A stretch of DNA of 34,311 nt from an uncultured Thiotrichaceae bacterium. Lineage in GTDB: Bacteria; Pseudomonadota; Gammaproteobacteria; Thiotrichales; Thiotrichaceae. A model generated the notes under the pieces. The model ran no database searches and was not told the origin of the DNA. It saw nothing but the letters and a program-made list of their open reading frames with translations. The stretch lies in assembly GCA_902727985.1 (NCBI GenBank), contig CACVAY010000050.1, positions 1-34,311 of the forward strand. Direction: 5' to 3'. A program made the translations under genes and the position numbers. Below are positions 23,339 through 30,734 of this stretch, one piece after another (the first letter of the stretch is position 1; every line of letters begins with the position of its first letter).

Positions 23339-24538
23339 TTATTCGCTACGAAGCGCTTCAACCGGTGCCATAGAGGCCGCTTTCCGTGCTGGAAGTAAAC
23401 CCGCGACCATTCCCGTTGCGATCGCAATAATTTCCGCAAGCAAGACATAATCCCAAGAAACACTCACGGGCAAGGCTGGAATAAAAAAATGCATCAGCCA
23501 AGCAATACTTAAACCCGTCAACATTCCGGCAACTCCCCCTAAACCCGACAAGACTGCCGCCTCAAATAAAAACAATAACGTGATTTGCCGTTTCGAAGCA
23601 CCCAAGGCACGCAACAGGCCGATTTCTTTTATACGCTCGTTCACTGCAATACTCATAATAGTGAAAATGCCAACGCCTCCAACCAATAGAGAAATACTAC
23701 CCAAGCCAGCCACAACCGCTGTTAAGATCGTGAGAATTGAACCTAACGTTCCAAGAATGTCGGTTTGCGAGGTAATCGTAAAATCTTCACCACCGTGACG
23801 TTCGATAAGGTATTTTTTGATACGTTCAACAATCTGTTTTTCATCACGCCCAGCCGCATATAATAGATCAACTTCCATCAAGCTTTCACGATTATAGAGC
23901 GACATCGCGCGATACACAGGAATATACACGATGTCATCCATATCAAAACCCAGCACCTGCCCTTTACTTTCCATCACGCCAATGACACGAAAACGTTCTT
24001 GCCCGATGCGGATGAATTCTCCCAAGGGGTTTCTGCCAGGGAACAACTCTTGTTTAATCTTATAACCGATAACAGCAAGGTTACGTGCTTGTTCTAGTTT
24101 CTCATTGGGCAAAAACCTCCCCTGTGCCACATTGATTTTCCACGTCTGAGGTACTTCATGATTGACACCAATAACAAATGTCCAACGTGTACGATTCCCA
24201 TGCTCGACGGGTGAATTTCCTTGCACCACTGGCACACTACTTCGCACATTTGGAATACGTCGCAGACCTTCCGCATCTTCTAATGAAAGTGGTCGTATAT
24301 TGCTAATAACGGCACCTGAAACGCCCATGGTTGTCGTTTTACCAGGATTGACAGCAATGATATGCGCCCCAAACTGCGTAAATTGCCCCAGCATATAATC
24401 CTGTGCGCCGCCGCCTAAAGCAGTTAGCAATACCACCGCCGCAATTCCGACGGCAATACCTAAGGCAGTAAGATACGTTCGTAAACGGCTAAAGCGTAAA
24501 CTGGAAAATGCCAGCATGGCGTAATCAGCAGTGCGCAT
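23339..24538 (-). CDS. MacB/FtsX-type ABC transporter permease, second
   Basis: This is an inner-membrane permease of the type VII (MacB/LolCE) ABC group, 399 residues. It has an N-terminal membrane helix (about 17-40), a periplasmic MacB_PCD domain (about 45-240) and a C-terminal FtsX domain with three helices (starting near 270, 325 and 360) holding GLLRALGASKRQI. These machines do not move substrate through the membrane but use ATP to act on periplasmic or envelope molecules. It is the last gene of the four-gene operon, 12 bases after the other permease gene. The two permeases are related but clearly different and probably form a heterodimer. Confidence 0.92.
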   Translation of the reverse strand: MRTADYAMLAFSSLRFSRLRTYLTALGIAVGIAAVVLLTALGGGAQDYMLGQFTQFGAHIIAVNPGKTTTMGVSGAVISNIRPLSLEDAEGLRRIPNVRSSVPVVQGNSPVEHGNRTRWTFVIGVNHEVPQTWKINVAQGRFLPNEKLEQARNLAVIGYKIKQELFPGRNPLGEFIRIGQERFRVIGVMESKGQVLGFDMDDIVYIPVYRAMSLYNRESLMEVDLLYAAGRDEKQIVERIKKYLIERHGGEDFTITSQTDILGTLGSILTILTAVVAGLGSISLLVGGVGIFTIMSIAVNERIKEIGLLRALGASKRQITLLFLFEAAVLSGLGGVAGMLTGLSIAWLMHFFIPALPVSVSWDYVLLAEIIAIATGMVAGLLPARKAASMAPVEALRSE

Positions 24539-24550
24539 AGAAGCTCTCCA

Positions 24551-25756
24551 TTATTTCCCTGACAAGGCGATGACTGGATTGAGTTTGGCGGCTTGACGCG
24601 CAGGAATACTGCCAAACACCAAGCCTGTCACAACCGTTACCAATAATGCAGCACCAATTGCCCACATTGGTGTTTGTACGGGGAAATCCGCAATCCAGAA
24701 CGTCACCATTTTTGCGCTGAATAGACCCAGCGCTAAACCGATCAATCCTCCTGCCAACGAAAGCATCAATGCTTCACTCAGAAATAGCGTCATCACCTGT
24801 CGTGTGGGTGCTCCCAATGCTTTTAACAGGCCAATTTCAGCCTTACGCTGGCTCACAGAAACCAGCATCACATTCATAATCAGAATGCCCGCGACAATAA
24901 GGCTAATAGCGGCAACTCCTGCTACTGCCCACGTCAGTGTTTTCAAAATACCATCGAAGGTTTTGAGCAATGCATCCTGACGTAAAATCGTCACATCATC
25001 ATCGCCATCATGACGAGCCCGAATGATCTTGATAACATCTTTCTCCGCCTGATCTAAGGCTTCCTTACTCCGCGCCTTTACAATAATACGGTACAGCGAA
25101 GGGATATTGAATAAGCTCTGGGCACTTGCAACGGGAATGATCACCACATCTTTCATATCCATGCCGATAGACTGTCCCTCAGAACTCAGCACTCCAATCA
25201 CTCGAAAACGATGATCACCAACACGAATCCACTCTCCCACAGGATGCTTTTTGCCAAACAACTCCTTGGCTAAGGTTTCGCCTAGCACACTGATAGATAC
25301 GGCATCACGCGGATCAGCCTCAGGTAAGAATTGCCCTTTCAGAATCTTCAACTCCACGGCATCGAACAACTCATTGTTGGTGCCAAAAACCATGACCTCA
25401 CGCTCTCTTGCTCCATAAGAAACCGGTGCTGCGCCGGTAACATTAGGGCTGACATATTGTACTGAACGACTGCGTTTCAAAGCGAGAGCATCATCAATTG
25501 TTAAATCACGTGGCGAAGTTCCCAAAAGCGGCGGGAGACCTCCTGTGGTTTCTGTTCTGCCTGGTAATACGAATAAAAGATGCGAACCCAACATCTGAAA
25601 TTGACCAACCACATACTGTCGAGCTCCCTCACCTAAGGTGGTAAGAATAATCACCGAAGCTACACCAATCGACATAGCCAATAAAATCAAACCAGTACGC
25701 ATTGGGTAAGCGGTTAAGGCGCGACCACTAAACTGTAAGTTGTCGCTCGCTCTCAT
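24551..25756 (-). CDS. MacB/FtsX-type ABC transporter permease, first
   Basis: A 401-residue relative of the preceding permease with the same plan: an N-terminal helix (about 20-42), a MacB_PCD periplasmic domain, and a C-terminal FtsX domain with three helices and the coupling motif GLLKALGAPTRQV. Its ATG overlaps the stop codon of the ATPase gene by four bases, so the two are translationally coupled. With the ATPase and the adaptor it makes a MacAB-like envelope export or extraction system. Unlike true MacB, the ATPase is a separate protein. Substrate unknown. Confidence 0.92.
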   Translation of the reverse strand: MRASDNLQFSGRALTAYPMRTGLILLAMSIGVASVIILTTLGEGARQYVVGQFQMLGSHLLFVLPGRTETTGGLPPLLGTSPRDLTIDDALALKRSRSVQYVSPNVTGAAPVSYGAREREVMVFGTNNELFDAVELKILKGQFLPEADPRDAVSISVLGETLAKELFGKKHPVGEWIRVGDHRFRVIGVLSSEGQSIGMDMKDVVIIPVASAQSLFNIPSLYRIIVKARSKEALDQAEKDVIKIIRARHDGDDDVTILRQDALLKTFDGILKTLTWAVAGVAAISLIVAGILIMNVMLVSVSQRKAEIGLLKALGAPTRQVMTLFLSEALMLSLAGGLIGLALGLFSAKMVTFWIADFPVQTPMWAIGAALLVTVVTGLVFGSIPARQAAKLNPVIALSGK

Positions 25757-26448
25757 GTTGCGCTTTCATTTGATCGCGAACTTTCATCCTGAACAATCTT
25801 GCCATCCAACATGCGAATGCGTCGGTGCGCACGTCTACCCAACGCCACATCATGCGTAACCACAACCAAAGTAATACCACTCACATTCAACGCTTCTAAA
25901 ATCTTAACCACCTCGGTGCCTGAATGTGTATCCAGATTTCCAGTGGGCTCATCGGCTAATAACATCGGTGGTTTGAGAATCATTGCCCGCGCGATTGCTA
26001 CACGTTGCTGTTGTCCTCCTGATAATTGTTTTGGCAAATGATGGGCTCGATCAGATAAGCCTAAATCCGCTAAAACTTTTGTCGATCGTTTACGACGTTC
26101 AGCAGGTGACATTCCCATCAACATCAGCGGCAACTCCAAATTCCCTGCGGCAGTGAGACGTGGAATAAGATGAAAGGATTGGAAAATAAAGCCAATATTT
26201 TCACGTCGAAAAGCAGCTCGTTTCTCTTCGGATAAAGTTGTCAGTTCTTTACCTTGGAATTGATAGCTTCCGGAATTCGGCTCATCCAGTAAACCCAGCA
26301 TATTCAGCAAGGTCGATTTCCCCGAACCAGATGCTCCCATAATGCTGATGTATTCACCCTTGGCAATATCCAGCGTTACATGATCCAGCGCATGTACGGT
26401 TTCATCACCCACCACAAATGAGCGGCAAATATCCTGCAACTCAATCAT
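25753..26448 (-). CDS. ABC transporter ATPase, MacB/LolD type
   Basis: A 231-residue nucleotide-binding protein. Walker A is GASGSGKS (38-45), the signature is [14 protein letters not shown], Walker B is MLLADEPTGNLD, and a switch His lies in VVTHD. The sequence between Walker A and the signature (FQSFHLIPRLTAAGNLELPL) is typical of the LolD/MacB group. It overlaps the adaptor gene by eight bases and the first permease gene by four, so all are on one transcript. It powers the two FtsX permeases. Confidence 0.95.
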   Translation of the reverse strand: MIELQDICRSFVVGDETVHALDHVTLDIAKGEYISIMGASGSGKSTLLNMLGLLDEPNSGSYQFQGKELTTLSEEKRAAFRRENIGFIFQSFHLIPRLTAAGNLELPLMLMGMSPAERRKRSTKVLADLGLSDRAHHLPKQLSGGQQQRVAIARAMILKPPMLLADEPTGNLDTHSGTEVVKILEALNVSGITLVVVTHDVALGRRAHRRIRMLDGKIVQDESSRSNESAT

Positions 26449-27616
26449 TATTTGGAGCCTCGTTTGCTGGTACGGCCTTAGTATCTAATTCAACCAAGGC
26501 ACCTTCTTTCACACCTTCCACACCTAAAGAAGTGACCAGTTGCTCGCCCTCTTTCAAGCCAGCAACAATCTCGGTAAAACTCCAATTGTGCAACCCTTTC
26601 TTGACCATTCGCTTCTCTAGCATTTTGCTATTTGGGTTAAATACCAAAACATGCGTGTCATCGAGAAAGGCTTCACTGGGAATACGTAATACATTTTGAT
26701 GTGTTTGCAGAACAATATCAGCATCCGCACTGTAGCCAACCAACAGAGCATCTAAATCAATAACATGTTTGAACTCCAGCTCAAGATCGACGGTACGCGC
26801 CTGCTTTTCTCTATCCACCACATACGAGCCCATTCTTGACACCTCAGCTTCGAATACACGACCACGCCACGCATCTAGTGTGACGCGTGCATGCATGCCC
26901 ATTTTCACTTTTGGCGCATCAACCTCATCAATCGGCACACTCACCAAAAAACAACCGGGTTCAATCAAATCAATAACAGGTGGCGTCAAAATTCCTGGAG
27001 GTGAAGGCGTCACATATTCATTGAGTTCACCGTTGATTTTCGCAACTACGCCATCAAAAGGTGCATACAAAATAGTGCGTAACAGCAAAGTCTCTGATGC
27101 CGCCAGACGCGCTCTTGCTACCGAGATATTCGATTTTGCGGCCTTGCAATTCGCCCTATGTACTTCAGCCCCAGTACTCACACGATCAAACTCTTCTTGG
27201 GATATTGTGCCCGCGCGACGTAAACGTATAGCACGGTCAGCGTTTCGCTTCGCGACTTCCGCTTGCAAACAAGTCGCTACAGCCGCATCCTGAGCAGCCT
27301 CAATGGCCTTTTCGTTATAGGTAACTTCAGCTTTTAAGTCCTCATTCCAGACTCTCAACAGCACCGCGTCTTTTTTTGCGAAATTACCTTCCTTAAAAGG
27401 TAAATCACTAATCTGCCCCCCAATGGATGGCGACAGCATAGCCCGCCGACAGGCTTTAATCGTACCCGCTCGTGTATTTGCAATAGTCGCCTCAACATCC
27501 CCCTTCTGCACGCTCGTCACCGTTACAGTAATAACCTCAGGATGTATTTTCTTCCAATACCAAGCATACGCAACAGCACCCACCAGAAGTGGAATAACAA
27601 TGTATGAAAGTCGCAT
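26441..27616 (-). CDS. HlyD/MacA-type periplasmic adaptor protein
   Basis: This is a membrane-fusion protein of 391 residues anchored by one N-terminal helix (about 5-20). A barrel-sandwich (lipoyl-like) domain is split by an alpha-helical hairpin (about 85-175, Ala/Arg-rich with heptad-like spacing). Beta-barrel and membrane-proximal domains follow (about 220-380). It should link the MacB-like permeases to an outer-membrane channel of TolC type, which is not encoded here. It is the first gene of the operon with AAGGAG seven bases before the ATG, divergent from nikR. Confidence 0.92.
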   Translation of the reverse strand: MRLSYIVIPLLVGAVAYAWYWKKIHPEVITVTVTSVQKGDVEATIANTRAGTIKACRRAMLSPSIGGQISDLPFKEGNFAKKDAVLLRVWNEDLKAEVTYNEKAIEAAQDAAVATCLQAEVAKRNADRAIRLRRAGTISQEEFDRVSTGAEVHRANCKAAKSNISVARARLAASETLLLRTILYAPFDGVVAKINGELNEYVTPSPPGILTPPVIDLIEPGCFLVSVPIDEVDAPKVKMGMHARVTLDAWRGRVFEAEVSRMGSYVVDREKQARTVDLELEFKHVIDLDALLVGYSADADIVLQTHQNVLRIPSEAFLDDTHVLVFNPNSKMLEKRMVKKGLHNWSFTEIVAGLKEGEQLVTSLGVEGVKEGALVELDTKAVPANEAPNND

Positions 27617-27748: not shown

Positions 27749-27827
27749 TTTGCGGTAAGGTGAATGATTTGTGAGTATCAGGTCGACCACCTACTATTTG
27801 GAAATAATGATTGTCTGTATCCTGCGC

Positions 27828-27873: not shown

Positions 27874-28359
27874 ATGGAACGTATTACAATTTCTTTAGAA
27901 GATGAACTTGCTGTTCAGTTTAAAGCTTTTATTAATGAACGAGGTTACAAAAATCGCTCAGAAGCGATAAGGGATCTGATCCGAGAAAAAATTGAAAATG
28001 AACGGCTTGAACAAACAGAAGGTACCTGTATAGGAACATTGACTTATTTATATGATCACCACGAAAGGGAATTAGCCAAGCGTTTAACGCAGGAGCATCA
28101 TCACCATCATGATTTAAGTATTTCAACGCTCCATGTACATTTAGATCATGATAACTGTATGGAAACAGTTATCGTCAAAGGAAATATTAACGAAGTTCAA
28201 GAGTTTGCAAATAATGTTATCTCGCAATCAGGTGTTCGGCACGGAAAGCTTTATCTGATTCCTGTAGAGATGAAAAATAAGCATCATATTCATGGAGACC
28301 ATGCTCCTAAAGATGATCAGAAAGGACATTCCCACGAGCACATATCACCAAAATCTTAA
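27874..28359 (+). CDS. nikR: nickel-responsive transcriptional regulator NikR, with His-rich tail
   Basis: NikR is a ribbon-helix-helix repressor of nickel uptake genes. The N-terminal DNA-binding domain is MERITISLEDELAVQF and onwards (1-45), followed by the ACT-like nickel-binding domain. All four E. coli nickel ligands occur at the same residue numbers: His76 (within a run of five His), His87, His89 and Cys95. The frame can be extended to a TTG at 27811, but the family N-terminus shows that the ATG at 27874 is the start. At 161 residues it exceeds the usual 130-140. The extra C-terminal tail (about 134-161) contains seven histidines and could store or sense metal. It is convergent with hupE. 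Confidence 0.95.
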   Translation: MERITISLEDELAVQFKAFINERGYKNRSEAIRDLIREKIENERLEQTEGTCIGTLTYLYDHHERELAKRLTQEHHHHHDLSISTLHVHLDHDNCMETVIVKGNINEVQEFANNVISQSGVRHGKLYLIPVEMKNKHHIHGDHAPKDDQKGHSHEHISPKS

Positions 28360-28424
28360 GAAAGCTCTGCATCATTTTATTTCTGAAAAAATGAGTCACG
28401 AAGAAATTTGCGGCTGCTTACATA

Positions 28425-28468
28425 TGATTAGTAACCAGACCTCTACTTAGACGCCTAGTTACTAATCA
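28425..28468. other. 11-bp perfect inverted repeat between nikR and hupE
   Basis: TGATTAGTAAC (28425-28435) and GTTACTAATCA (28458-28468) are perfect inverted repeats 22 bases apart, between the convergent ends of nikR and hupE. It can form a long AT-rich stem and may be a bidirectional transcription end, although T-runs are weak. A binding site for a dimer is possible. Confidence 0.5.
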
Positions 28469-28476
28469 GATATTCC

Positions 28477-29070
28477 TTAAATTGCTCCTGTCAGGAAACC
28501 AACACCCGCCATAGCAATAAGACCACCGCCGGCTCGTAGAATTATGTCGCCTTTTGGCAAGCGAATCACTTCGCCAAATGCAATACCTGCCAAGTGGAGT
28601 AAACCTGTTGAAATAACAAACCCCGCACTGTAAGCCAATGGACTAACAGCTCCAGGTAATTCGGTTCCGTGCGCATGTCCATGGAAAATCGCAAAAGCCC
28701 CAACGATAACGGCAGCAACCCAAAGAGGTGCTTTTGTTGCAAAAACAATCAATAACCCAAGGACAATAGAGGAAACAGCAATACCCGTTTCAATGGCTGG
28801 AATTGGCACACCTAAAATTCCCAGAACTCCACCAAATGCCATTATCAGTGGAAATACAACTGGTAAAATCCAAATAGCTGGGCGACCAAGAAAAGCCCCC
28901 CAAATACCGACGGCAACCATTGCTGTCACATGATCCCAACCAAACAGGGGGTGCGTAAAACCACTAATAAAACCACTGCCACTATCGGCTCCAGAGTGAG
29001 CCATCGCAACTGATATGGTTGCGACAAGCAACACAAGAGTTTTGCTTACAAACTTCCCTAATAAAAACAT
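28477..29070 (-). CDS. hupE: HupE/UreJ-family nickel permease
   Basis: This is an inner-membrane secondary nickel (or cobalt) transporter of 197 residues with a cleavable N-terminal segment (cut after AMA, about residue 24) followed by His at the mature N-terminus. It then has about six helices. The two HupE hallmarks are present: HPLFGWDH (His40, Asp46, His47) in the first helix and FHGHAHGTE (129-137) in a later one. Both are proposed metal-binding motifs. The ATG has GGAGT about eight bases upstream. NikR next door supports nickel as substrate. Confidence 0.92.
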   Translation of the reverse strand: MFLLGKFVSKTLVLLVATISVAMAHSGADSGSGFISGFTHPLFGWDHVTAMVAVGIWGAFLGRPAIWILPVVFPLIMAFGGVLGILGVPIPAIETGIAVSSIVLGLLIVFATKAPLWVAAVIVGAFAIFHGHAHGTELPGAVSPLAYSAGFVISTGLLHLAGIAFGEVIRLPKGDIILRAGGGLIAMAGVGFLTGAI

Positions 29071-29117
29071 TCAAATACTCCATGGAAAAAGATACGGAAG
29101 AATTATAGCTCTAAATT

Positions 29118-29179
29118 TCATACAAAAAAAATATTTTGCTTACATTTATAGAAAGCATTGATACTATTCACTATCATAC
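29118..29179. promoter_or_regulatory. candidate porin promoter and regulator sites between hupE and the porin
   Basis: In this 153-base AT-rich divergent gap, TTGCTT (29136-29141) and GATACT (29160-29165) with an 18-base spacer form a plausible plus-strand promoter. An inverted repeat TGATA-N8-TATCA (29159-29176) covers its -10 element, a good place for a repressor. The E. coli NikR half site TCATAC occurs twice (29118-29123 and 29174-29179), each followed by a run of seven or more A or T, but in direct rather than inverted orientation. NikR control is therefore only a suggestion. Confidence 0.35.
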
Positions 29180-29223
29180 TTTTTTTATATTTTTCATAAA
29201 ATAGGATTAATCATATACGCAAA

Positions 29224-30120
29224 GTGCTGTCAAGCTTATTGGTTCTTAGCTGCTTTAGTAGTGTTATTTATGCAAATGAAACCACAAACACGACAAGTGT
29301 CAGTGGCCTGCTTGAAATTGAGGTCTCTTATAACGATGCAGCAAGTAGTAGTGATATTAATTTGGCGACCCTTGAGCTGGCCACTGAGCATCGTTTCAAT
29401 GAAAAAGTAGATGCCCAGGTGTTGTTCTTGTATGAAGAAGGTGAGAATGACGATAACATTGCTATTGATGAAGCGACTATCAACGTCCATCCCAATAACA
29501 CCACAAATGTCTCAGCTGGGCGGATGTATGTACCGTTTGGTAAATTTGAAAGCATGATGGTATCTGATCCTCAAACACTGGAACTTGCAGAAACTCAGGA
29601 AGAAGCGATTTTATTGGCTAAACAGTTCGGAAATATCACCGCGACAGCCTATGTTTTTAAAGATGATGAAGATGCTTCCGATAAAATTGATGACGGTGGC
29701 ATCAGCCTCGACTATGAAACAGATGGCTTCATGACAGGCATCTCCTATATCTCCGATGTAAACAACAAATCGAATGCAAATACCCAAGCCTCAGGTACTG
29801 CGATTTATGCTGTAGGAACGCGTAATCAATTAAGTTTAATAGCAGAGCATATTGCACTTGATACCACCTCCGATGGCGAAAAGCCGAAAGCTACCAATTT
29901 CGAAGTGGGTTTTGATTTCGGAAATGATAGAGCCATTGCGGCTTCATACCAAACGACCTCAAATGCCCTAGCGGCGGGATTACCCAAGAATGCAACAGGT
30001 CTCGCCTATAGCATGCCCGTTTATGACAATACGCAATTTGCAGCGGAATATATGCAAACCGAGAACTATGCGGGTGAGAATGATAAGACTGTCACGTTGC
30101 AAGTCGCTTACGAATTTTAG
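29224..30120 (+). CDS. LbtU-like outer-membrane porin
   Basis: This is an exported beta-barrel protein of about 298 residues ending in Phe (VAYEF), as outer-membrane proteins do. The sequence alternates beta strands with acidic loops. The block GRMYVPFGKFESMMVSDPQTLELAETQEE (about 100-128) fits the LbtU siderophore-porin family of Legionella. Placed between two HupE-type genes, it may pass nickel or a nickel chelate rather than an iron siderophore. Start problem: the first standard codon is GTG at 29224 with no ribosome binding site, giving a signal peptide without positive charge. An in-frame ATA at 29215 (IRKVLSS...) has AGGA eight bases upstream and would add Arg-Lys. Confidence 0.82.
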   Translation: MLSSLLVLSCFSSVIYANETTNTTSVSGLLEIEVSYNDAASSSDINLATLELATEHRFNEKVDAQVLFLYEEGENDDNIAIDEATINVHPNNTTNVSAGRMYVPFGKFESMMVSDPQTLELAETQEEAILLAKQFGNITATAYVFKDDEDASDKIDDGGISLDYETDGFMTGISYISDVNNKSNANTQASGTAIYAVGTRNQLSLIAEHIALDTTSDGEKPKATNFEVGFDFGNDRAIAASYQTTSNALAAGLPKNATGLAYSMPVYDNTQFAAEYMQTENYAGENDKTVTLQVAYEF

Positions 30121-30134
30121 CCTGAAAACGCCAT

Positions 30135-30160
30135 GGTGCTTCTCTAAAAAGCACCTTTTT
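30135..30160 (+). terminator. rho-independent terminator after the LbtU-like porin
   Basis: GGTGCTT (30135-30141) and AAGCACC (30149-30155) form a 7-bp stem with a 7-base loop followed by TTTTT. It lies 14 bases after the porin stop codon and touches the stop codon of the convergent HupE-like gene. Confidence 0.9.
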
Positions 30161-30734
30161 ACTTTTGTAAGCCAAGCACCAGAACCATCAAACTACTCGC
30201 TACCAACCAGGATCCTAATACTCTGACAGGAATTCCATGTAGCCACTTTCGGATCACTTCGGTCATACCAGCAACATAAACAACAAGAAAACTGACTCCA
30301 ACTACCGTCCCGAAAAGAGCGATGTAACGCTCCTCGCCCGAAAATGTTTCTTGGGAAGAATCAATACCGACAAGCAGTGCGGCCGTAAGAGCAGAAATTC
30401 TGAGTAGCATGATGGGCAACTGCCGCCCCCAAACAAGGACACTCCCTAATAGTATTGCAGTCGTCAGCAATATGGGCGCCACATCTAGATTGACTGCCCA
30501 TTGACTGAGTAGGACTCCCGCAATTACAGCCACCATAAATACTGGCACAGCCCCAGCAATCGCCTCATCTCCCTGACGACCAATTAATAGACCTGTTGCT
30601 AGTAACAAGATGATGTGCGCGGGGATTAAAACAGGATGCAATACCCCATTAAAAAAATGGTTCATTCCTTCGATAGGAGCATGAGCCAATGCGCTGCTTG
30701 GTATTAGAACAAGTAAAGTTAATATCAGACGCAT
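30159..30734 (-). CDS. divergent HupE/UreJ-like membrane protein
   Basis: A 191-residue inner-membrane protein with a signal peptide cut after ALA (residue 17), leaving mature N-terminal His as in HupE, then about six hydrophobic helices. The first helix has FNGVLHPVLIPAH (His33, His40), which parallels the HupE motif HP-x(4)-DH but with Ala in place of Asp. The second hallmark FHGxAHGxE is missing (that place reads GIDSSQETFSGEE). It is probably a HupE-like paralogue with altered metal binding, or a partner subunit. It is convergent with the porin, whose terminator touches its stop codon. Confidence 0.7.
   Translation of the reverse strand: MRLILTLLVLIPSSALAHAPIEGMNHFFNGVLHPVLIPAHIILLLATGLLIGRQGDEAIAGAVPVFMVAVIAGVLLSQWAVNLDVAPILLTTAILLGSVLVWGRQLPIMLLRISALTAALLVGIDSSQETFSGEERYIALFGTVVGVSFLVVYVAGMTEVIRKWLHGIPVRVLGSWLVASSLMVLVLGLQK

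What the first reader, a model, noticed from the sequence alone, without database searches (positions are those of the whole stretch)
27874..30734. Compact putative nickel-acquisition locus: NikR, HupE, LbtU-like porin and a second HupE-like protein
Seen: four adjacent genes encoding a NikR with intact nickel ligands, a HupE with both metal motifs, an outer-membrane LbtU-type porin, and a divergent HupE-like protein. Known: HupE and NikR act on nickel, and LbtU in Legionella takes up a siderophore. Inferred: the porin here gives nickel or a nickel chelate a path across the outer membrane, so the locus would be a two-membrane nickel import system built on a porin rather than a TonB receptor.
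Basis: partly seen in the sequence, partly recalled or inferred. Interest (0 to 1): 0.68.

Follow-up and report, generated by a model that had tools for sequence, protein, structure and literature searches.

The report
NikR-linked nickel porin beside HupE importer
A relative of the sulfur bacterium Thiothrix seems to let nickel through its outer membrane with a simple porin, placed beside a nickel importer under a nickel-sensing repressor, and a similar pairing of porin and repressor turns up independently in other bacteria.

Summary
The four genes are real: NikR (+), HupE (-), LbtU-family porin (+), divergent HupE-like protein (-). Strands alternate, so they are not an operon. The HupE/porin gap holds a direct repeat, TCATAC-N14-TCATAA, the genome's only match to a pattern (up to 1 mismatch) that stands before nikMN, hupE or an OprD-like porin in relatives: 10 of 12 NikR genomes of the order, this one included. 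It ends 15 nt before the likely porin start. Close orthologs of the porin sit in imelysin iron operons, so it was probably recruited from iron uptake. Independently, in a Chromatiaceae-like family, 7 of 8 NikR loci have a porin (LbtU 5, BBP2 1, OprB 1) beside nikR and divergent from nikK, with NikR-type repeats in the shared gap. The porin is modelled as an acidic 16-strand barrel without a TonB plug. The genome has a [NiFe] hydrogenase and a urease-alpha match, but no CbiM. Best reading: a NikR-controlled porin-plus-HupE nickel import unit. HupE2 lacks the HupE signature and an operator. H. pylori HopV/HopW are a precedent. An LbtU porin directly beside hupE was seen only here. Binding and transport are untested.

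The parts
27874..28359 (+). nikR, nickel-responsive ribbon-helix-helix repressor with a His-rich C-terminal tail
   Evidence: NF002815 197 bits; alignment of 10 NikR proteins
28477..29070 (-). hupE1, inner-membrane nickel/cobalt permease of the HupE/UreJ family, both motifs present
   Evidence: (PF04955 9.4e-58)
29118..29143 (+). second, weaker candidate operator (2 mismatches) 47 nt upstream of hupE1
   Evidence: this one and 29174-29199 are the only two direct-repeat matches with up to 2 mismatches in the 34-kb window
29174..29199 (+). candidate NikR operator TCATAC-N14-TCATAA in the hupE1/porin divergent gap, 15 nt before the likely porin start and 103 nt from hupE1
   Evidence: only match of the pattern, up to 1 mismatch, in the 3.54-Mb genome; distances
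29203..29206 (+). AGGA, likely ribosome-binding site of the porin
   Evidence: Read directly; inference
29215..30120 (+). LbtU-family outer-membrane porin; probable ATA start 29215 (GTG 29224 is the start listed)
   Evidence: NF033652 158.7 bits; alignment; 16-strand barrel, pLDDT 91.8
30135..30155 (+). terminator-like hairpin between the convergent porin and hupE2 genes
   Evidence: consensus match only
30159..30734 (-). hupE2, divergent HupE-like membrane protein without HPxxGxDH or the second His motif; no operator found upstream

Best explanation
A nickel import unit under NikR control. When nickel is scarce, NikR leaves the operator(s) between hupE1 and the porin gene, and both divergent genes are transcribed. 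The acidic 16-strand LbtU-family porin lets Ni2+ (or a small Ni complex) through the outer membrane without TonB; HupE1 carries it across the inner membrane to supply the [NiFe] hydrogenase and probably a urease. When nickel is plentiful, Ni-NikR shuts both off. The porin was recruited from an iron-uptake operon and brought under the nickel repressor. Shown by computation: genes, families, operator-like repeat and its conservation, recurrent nikR-porin linkage, barrel model. Inferred: NikR binding, repression, nickel passage, and any role of HupE2.
For: Operator: in 41 loci (624 kb, some overlapping; 12 of them hold a NikR neighbourhood) all 11 TCATAC-N14-TCATAC matches with up to 1 mismatch lie in the NikR loci; 10 of 12 NikR genomes of the order have it before nikMN (5), hupE (3: G029, G040, G043), an OprD-like porin (G016) or in the hupE1/porin gap (here). 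The window match is the only one in its genome. In congener G016 the order is nikR, operator, OprD-like porin, hupE on one strand. In the family of G275, 7 of 8 NikR loci have a porin beside nikR with NikR-type repeats in the porin/nikK gap. GTRNYAC-N13/14 repeats: 20 in 43 NikR loci (606 kb; at least one region counted twice, L153/L199) against 3 in 77 LbtU loci without NikR (1.0 Mb). Trees: the window porin falls among iron-operon porins, apart from the Chromatiaceae-like nikR-linked clade. Need for nickel: [NiFe] hydrogenase with neighbouring hyp-like ORFs, urease-alpha match, no CbiM. Barrel without plug, net charge -31.
Against: Close orthologs of this porin (42-53% identity) lie in imelysin/Fbp iron operons, and FeoB is within 5 kb in 12 of 80 LbtU loci; acidity is family-wide, so it does not single out nickel. 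With up to 1 mismatch the operator pattern is barely above background over whole genomes (45 matches against 38 for the reversed control, my tally; in this genome 1 against 1), so its weight rests on position and on the 7 exact copies, and the geometry was found after looking at these regions. The gap is shared with hupE1, which alone could explain the operator. An LbtU porin directly beside hupE was found nowhere else among the loci examined. In G042 the matching repeat is not in the nikR/hupE gap. One paper holds that porins pass cations poorly (PMC11247825, passage). No binding or transport data.
Confidence: 0.7

Rival explanations
1. The porin is still an iron or siderophore porin that happens to share a divergent promoter region with hupE1; the NikR operator acts on hupE1 only.
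For: Orthologs in imelysin-DHOR-imelysin-DUF1513-porin operons, in several genomes followed by FbpABC-like genes; FeoB near 12 of 80 LbtU loci; LbtU itself is a siderophore receptor (PMC8891985 passage).
Against: The operator ends 15 nt from the porin start but lies 103 nt from hupE1; in congener G016 the operator precedes a different porin; this genome has no imelysin match; a separate LbtU clade lies in nikR-nikK loci.
Confidence: 0.15
2. The unit imports cobalt, or nickel and cobalt, for cobalamin rather than nickel for hydrogenase and urease.
For: A HupE protein has been shown to carry cobalt (PMC7689651 passage).
Against: NikR is the adjacent regulator and the shared operator stands before CbiM/NikM genes that follow nikR in relatives; a [NiFe] hydrogenase and a urease-alpha match are present. 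I did not search for cobalamin genes or a B12 riboswitch.
Confidence: 0.08
3. A chance neighbourhood: unrelated genes with no shared control.
For: Alternating strands; the direct hupE-LbtU pair is unique among the loci examined; one-mismatch operator matches also arise by chance.
Against: The genome's single match falls in this 144-bp gap, and nikR-porin pairs recur.
Confidence: 0.07

Closest known systems
Helicobacter pylori NikR-regulated HopV/HopW (PMC5385501, passages read)
   Same: Porin-like outer-membrane proteins under direct NikR control; the hopV mutant derepressed NikR targets, suggesting less intracellular nickel.
   Different: Helicobacter-specific Hop proteins; here LbtU, OprD-like, BBP2 and OprB porins in other bacteria, beside nikR with hupE or nikK/nikM.
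NikR-controlled nikMN(QO)/nikKL import loci (PMC545781, passages read)
   Same: Same regulator; repeats with 13/14-base spacers, half-site orientation known to vary; relatives of this window have nikMN behind the same operator.
   Different: Here HupE stands in for NikMN, the repeat is direct (TCATAC-N14-TCATAC), and an outer-membrane porin is part of the locus; the passages read mention porins only under FUR.
LbtU siderophore porin of Legionella (PMC8891985, passages read)
   Same: Same NCBI family; TonB-independent outer-membrane protein.
   Different: I saw no siderophore genes in the window's ORF list; a NikR rather than an iron context.
TonB-dependent nickel receptors FrpB4, FecA3, NikH, CntO (listed in PMC11247825, passages read)
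   Same: Outer-membrane step of nickel uptake.
   Different: No plug domain, 16-strand barrel, no ExbB/ExbD/TonB genes among its four neighbours.
Passive entry of cobalt or nickel through general porins (PMC7689651, PMC11247825, passages read)
   Same: Metal ions crossing by porin.
   Different: Those are unregulated general porins; here the porin is placed under the metal's own repressor.

Membership tests
NikR | ribbon-helix-helix plus NikR_C domain with H/H/H/C nickel ligands | tested here: met
   ligand positions recalled, residues seen in the alignment
NikR | nickel-dependent binding to the operator | not testable with these tools
   Needs a binding assay
HupE/UreJ (hupE1) | PF04955 over cut-off and HPxxGxDH in the first helix | tested here: met
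   (195 bits); motif definition from PMC7689651
HupE/UreJ (hupE2) | HPxxGxDH signature | tested here: not met
   HPVLIPAH; the Pfam score is still over cut-off (53 against 23 bits), so a divergent relative, not a standard HupE
LbtU family siderophore porin (NF033652) | score over the curated cut-off of 90 bits | tested here: met
   158.7 bits in two stretches
LbtU family siderophore porin (NF033652) | uptake of a ferric siderophore | not testable with these tools
   Function of this member unknown
TonB-dependent receptor | plug domain within the barrel | tested here: not met
   only a Porin_O_P match at E up to 1; 16 strands fill residues 26-300
General/specific 16-strand porins (OmpT, OmpU, Omp32, OprP/OprO) | 16-strand barrel fold | tested here: met
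   (top eight rows: Z 24.4-25.3, rmsd 2.5-3.0 over 264-274 residues)

The most novel reading that the evidence does not exclude
Plain porins of several families (LbtU, OprD-like, BBP2, OprB) have been drafted repeatedly as NikR-controlled nickel entry channels of the outer membrane, giving a general TonB-independent route for nickel; the window shows one drafted out of an iron operon.
Probability: 0.6. Interest if true: 0.72.

Novelty: new variant of a known kind. Interest (0 to 1): 0.62.

Why it matters
Active nickel entry through the outer membrane is described mainly for TonB-dependent receptors. A porin kept in NikR loci, swapped between families while the operator stays, would point to regulated passive entry as a second common solution. 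It also gives a directly testable case of a metal porin changing its metal by changing its regulator.

Tried and rejected
Fur control of the porin: the best 19-bp Fur-consensus match in the hupE1/porin gap is 12 of 19; shuffled copies of the gap average 11.8, and 314 of 500 reach 12. The same consensus did not stand out before the relatives' imelysin genes either (9-12 of 19), so this neither supports nor excludes iron control.

Classical inverted NikR box (GTATGA-N16-TCATAC): only 2-3-mismatch matches in the window gap; the direct repeat fits better. A perfect inverted repeat (N15) occurs in G028 before a DUF4198 gene.

L103:6206-7231 was first taken as a gene under an operator in G042; it overlaps, on the other strand, an ORF of 259 codons that looks like the real gene, matches no family, and G042 is not counted.

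Sigma-70 scan: fewer promoter-like sites than in shuffles (5 against a mean of 9.7); not used.

The second structure job, the viral collection and the annotated phage, plasmid and E. coli collections were not used. Cobalamin genes and B12 riboswitches were not searched. The careful version of the 84-row tree did not finish; its quick version is reported.

Literature: searches (open-licence PMC only; titles, abstract starts and, for seven papers, passages seen) showed no paper on an LbtU- or OprB-type porin in a NikR locus; H. pylori HopV/HopW was found. In Sphingobium a HupE/UreJ-like gene is differentially expressed at high nickel and is discussed as up-regulated (PMC5557971 passages), a reminder that HupE need not be nickel-repressed.
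Full report
WHAT IS THERE. The window is contig C50 of a 3.54-Mb, 152-contig genome. Related genomes of the order and family include Thiothrix and Cocleimonas (named matches whose contigs equal fetched ones; Thiothrix is in Thiotrichaceae). The four genes are as described: nikR 27874-28359 (+), hupE1 28477-29070 (-), porin to 30120 (+), hupE2 30159-30734 (-), with family support. Because strands alternate, the pair that can share control is hupE1 and the porin, which diverge from one gap of 144 bp. The likely porin start is ATA at 29215, with AGGA eight bases upstream (read); one search lists GTG 29224.

AN OPERATOR IN THE GAP. Comparing upstream regions of NikR-linked genes in relatives gave a direct repeat, TCATAC-N14-TCATAC. 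In 41 loci (624,463 bases, some overlapping; 12 hold a NikR neighbourhood) all 11 matches with up to one mismatch fall in NikR loci. In whole genomes of the order (63) a slightly stricter pattern gave 45 matches against 38 for the reversed control (my tally), so one-mismatch matches alone are weak. The 7 exact copies are not: 6 stand before a CbiM/NikM gene (G044, G050, G053, G054, G056, G058) and 1 before hupE1 (G043). In this genome the pattern occurs once (as does the reversed control), at 29174-29199, in the hupE1/porin gap. A second, weaker copy (2 mismatches) lies at 29118-29143; these two are the only matches with up to 2 mismatches in the window. The repeat ends 15 nt before the likely porin start and lies 103 nt from hupE1; before nikMN in relatives the distance is about 14-37 nt (partly read from the printed sequences). 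Of 12 genomes with NikR, 10 have the repeat before a nickel gene or in this gap; G028 has an inverted form before a DUF4198 gene, and G042's match is misplaced. One exact copy is in G053, where no NikR was found.

A PORIN IN THE SAME PLACE IN A CONGENER. In G016 (same genus) the order on one strand is nikR, operator, an OprD-like porin (PF03573 9e-9), hupE. So two congeners put different porins next to the same operator. Neither has a CbiM match. In five other NikR genomes (G044, G050, G054, G056, G058) the operator precedes a CbiM/NikM gene; in G050 and G058 ExbB- and TonB-like genes follow.

WHERE THIS PORIN CAME FROM. LbtU-family matches occur in 21 of 63 genomes of the order. The close orthologs (42-53% identity) lie in a conserved cluster: imelysin, di-haem oxidoreductase, imelysin, DUF1513 and the porin, followed in several by an FbpABC-like iron transporter. 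In a 24-row tree the window porin groups (95/91) with two such porins, from G015 and G023; in an 84-row quick tree the smallest well-supported set around it is 7 imelysin-linked rows plus itself (95). This genome has no imelysin match. The porin was therefore most likely recruited from iron uptake. HupE lies 6-13 kb from the porin in four relatives (G048, G051, G052, G057), so the two were not always far apart.

INDEPENDENT RECURRENCE. In a class-wide sample 47 of 370 genomes have NikR, 51 matches. I fetched 40 of these neighbourhoods. Seven have a porin beside nikR: LbtU in 3, BBP2 in 1, Porin_4-type in 1, OprB in 2; TonB receptors lie beside nikR or one ORF away in 2. These are lower bounds, since only chosen ORFs were scanned, and the three LbtU loci and the BBP2 locus belong to one family, that of G275. 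In that family 8 of 11 genomes have NikR, and 7 of these 8 loci carry a porin next to nikR and divergent from nikK (DUF4198): LbtU in G172, G275, G421, G433, G435 (the last two by my own profile and a weak Porin_O_P match); BBP2 in G356; OprB in G434; none in G429. All 7 have NikR-type repeats (up to 1 mismatch) in the porin/nikK gap. The repeat class GTRNYAC-N13/14-GTRNYAC is denser in NikR loci (20 in 606 kb, one region counted twice, some far from nikR) than in LbtU loci without NikR (3 in 1.0 Mb), and other spacings are not; it resembles the published delta-proteobacterial signal (PMC545781, passages). Among 80 named LbtU loci (best 80 of 296) NikR lies within six ORFs in 3, imelysin in 8, and FeoB within 5 kb in 12 (FeoB by clustering, one member scanned); hupE in none. 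So the nikR-LbtU link recurs, while a direct hupE-LbtU neighbourhood was seen only here. The window porin and the G172/G275/G421 porins form one clade in 0% of 200 bootstrap trees.

THE PROTEINS. The porin model has mean pLDDT 91.8 and 16 strands with no plug; nearest solved folds include OmpT, OmpU, Omp32, PorB and OprP/OprO. The segment PFG...SDP.TLELGET, between strands 5 and 6 and so probably the loop that folds into the pore, is the family's most conserved part. The protein is acidic (net -31), as is the whole family (-20 to -64 in 52 rows), which suits cations but does not single out nickel. HupE1 has both metal motifs; HupE2 does not. A strong and a weak HupE match lie within 2 kb in at least 24 of 63 genomes, and several pairs are followed by DUF1007. 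HupE2 is thus an old companion of HupE1, but here it is convergent to the porin and has no operator.

DEMAND. The genome has one [NiFe] hydrogenase large subunit, with neighbouring ORFs that look like its small subunit and hyp maturation genes (identities by eye), a urease-alpha match (122.6 bits), no CbiM match and 3 TonB-receptor plug matches, none on the contig with the genome's only operator match.

MECHANISM AND LIMITS. I conclude, at about 0.7, that NikR represses hupE1 and the porin from the shared gap when nickel is sufficient, and that the porin is the outer-membrane entry. Binding, repression and transport are inferred. The nearest precedent is H. pylori NikR control of porin-like HopV and HopW (PMC5385501, passages). 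The kind, a NikR-controlled outer-membrane nickel channel, is therefore known; the LbtU/OprD/BBP2/OprB porins, the direct-repeat operator and the recruitment from an iron operon are the new variant.

Noticed in passing
window 28273-28356 (C-terminal part of nikR): NikR carries a His-rich C-terminal tail with a shared H.H..P-like end in several Thiotrichaceae NikRs, missing in shorter ones.
   Followed up: no
window 27803-27821: A 15-of-19 match to the Fur consensus upstream of nikR, hinting at iron control of the nickel regulator; not tested against relatives.
   Followed up: no
window 29215: The porin's best-placed start codon is ATA, a rare start, 8 nt after AGGA.
   Followed up: partly
window 23339-27616: MacAB/HlyD-like efflux genes flank nikR; a similar set lies near nikR in G028 (L099).
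   Followed up: no
L267:6990-7015: An exact copy of the operator before a CbiM gene in a genome (G053) in which no NikR was found.
   Followed up: partly
L166:9960-11078, L171:5306-6409, L182:6261-7190: NikR lies near molybdenum-cofactor (MoaA-type) or molybdopterin-enzyme genes in three class-level loci.
   Followed up: no
G016:C196:4253-4567: A HupE copy with an internal TGA in the congener G016, possibly a pseudogene.
   Followed up: no
G000:C47:770-1519, G000:C141:63329-64072: Two further LbtU-family porins elsewhere in the genome, with no nickel gene recognised beside them.
   Followed up: partly
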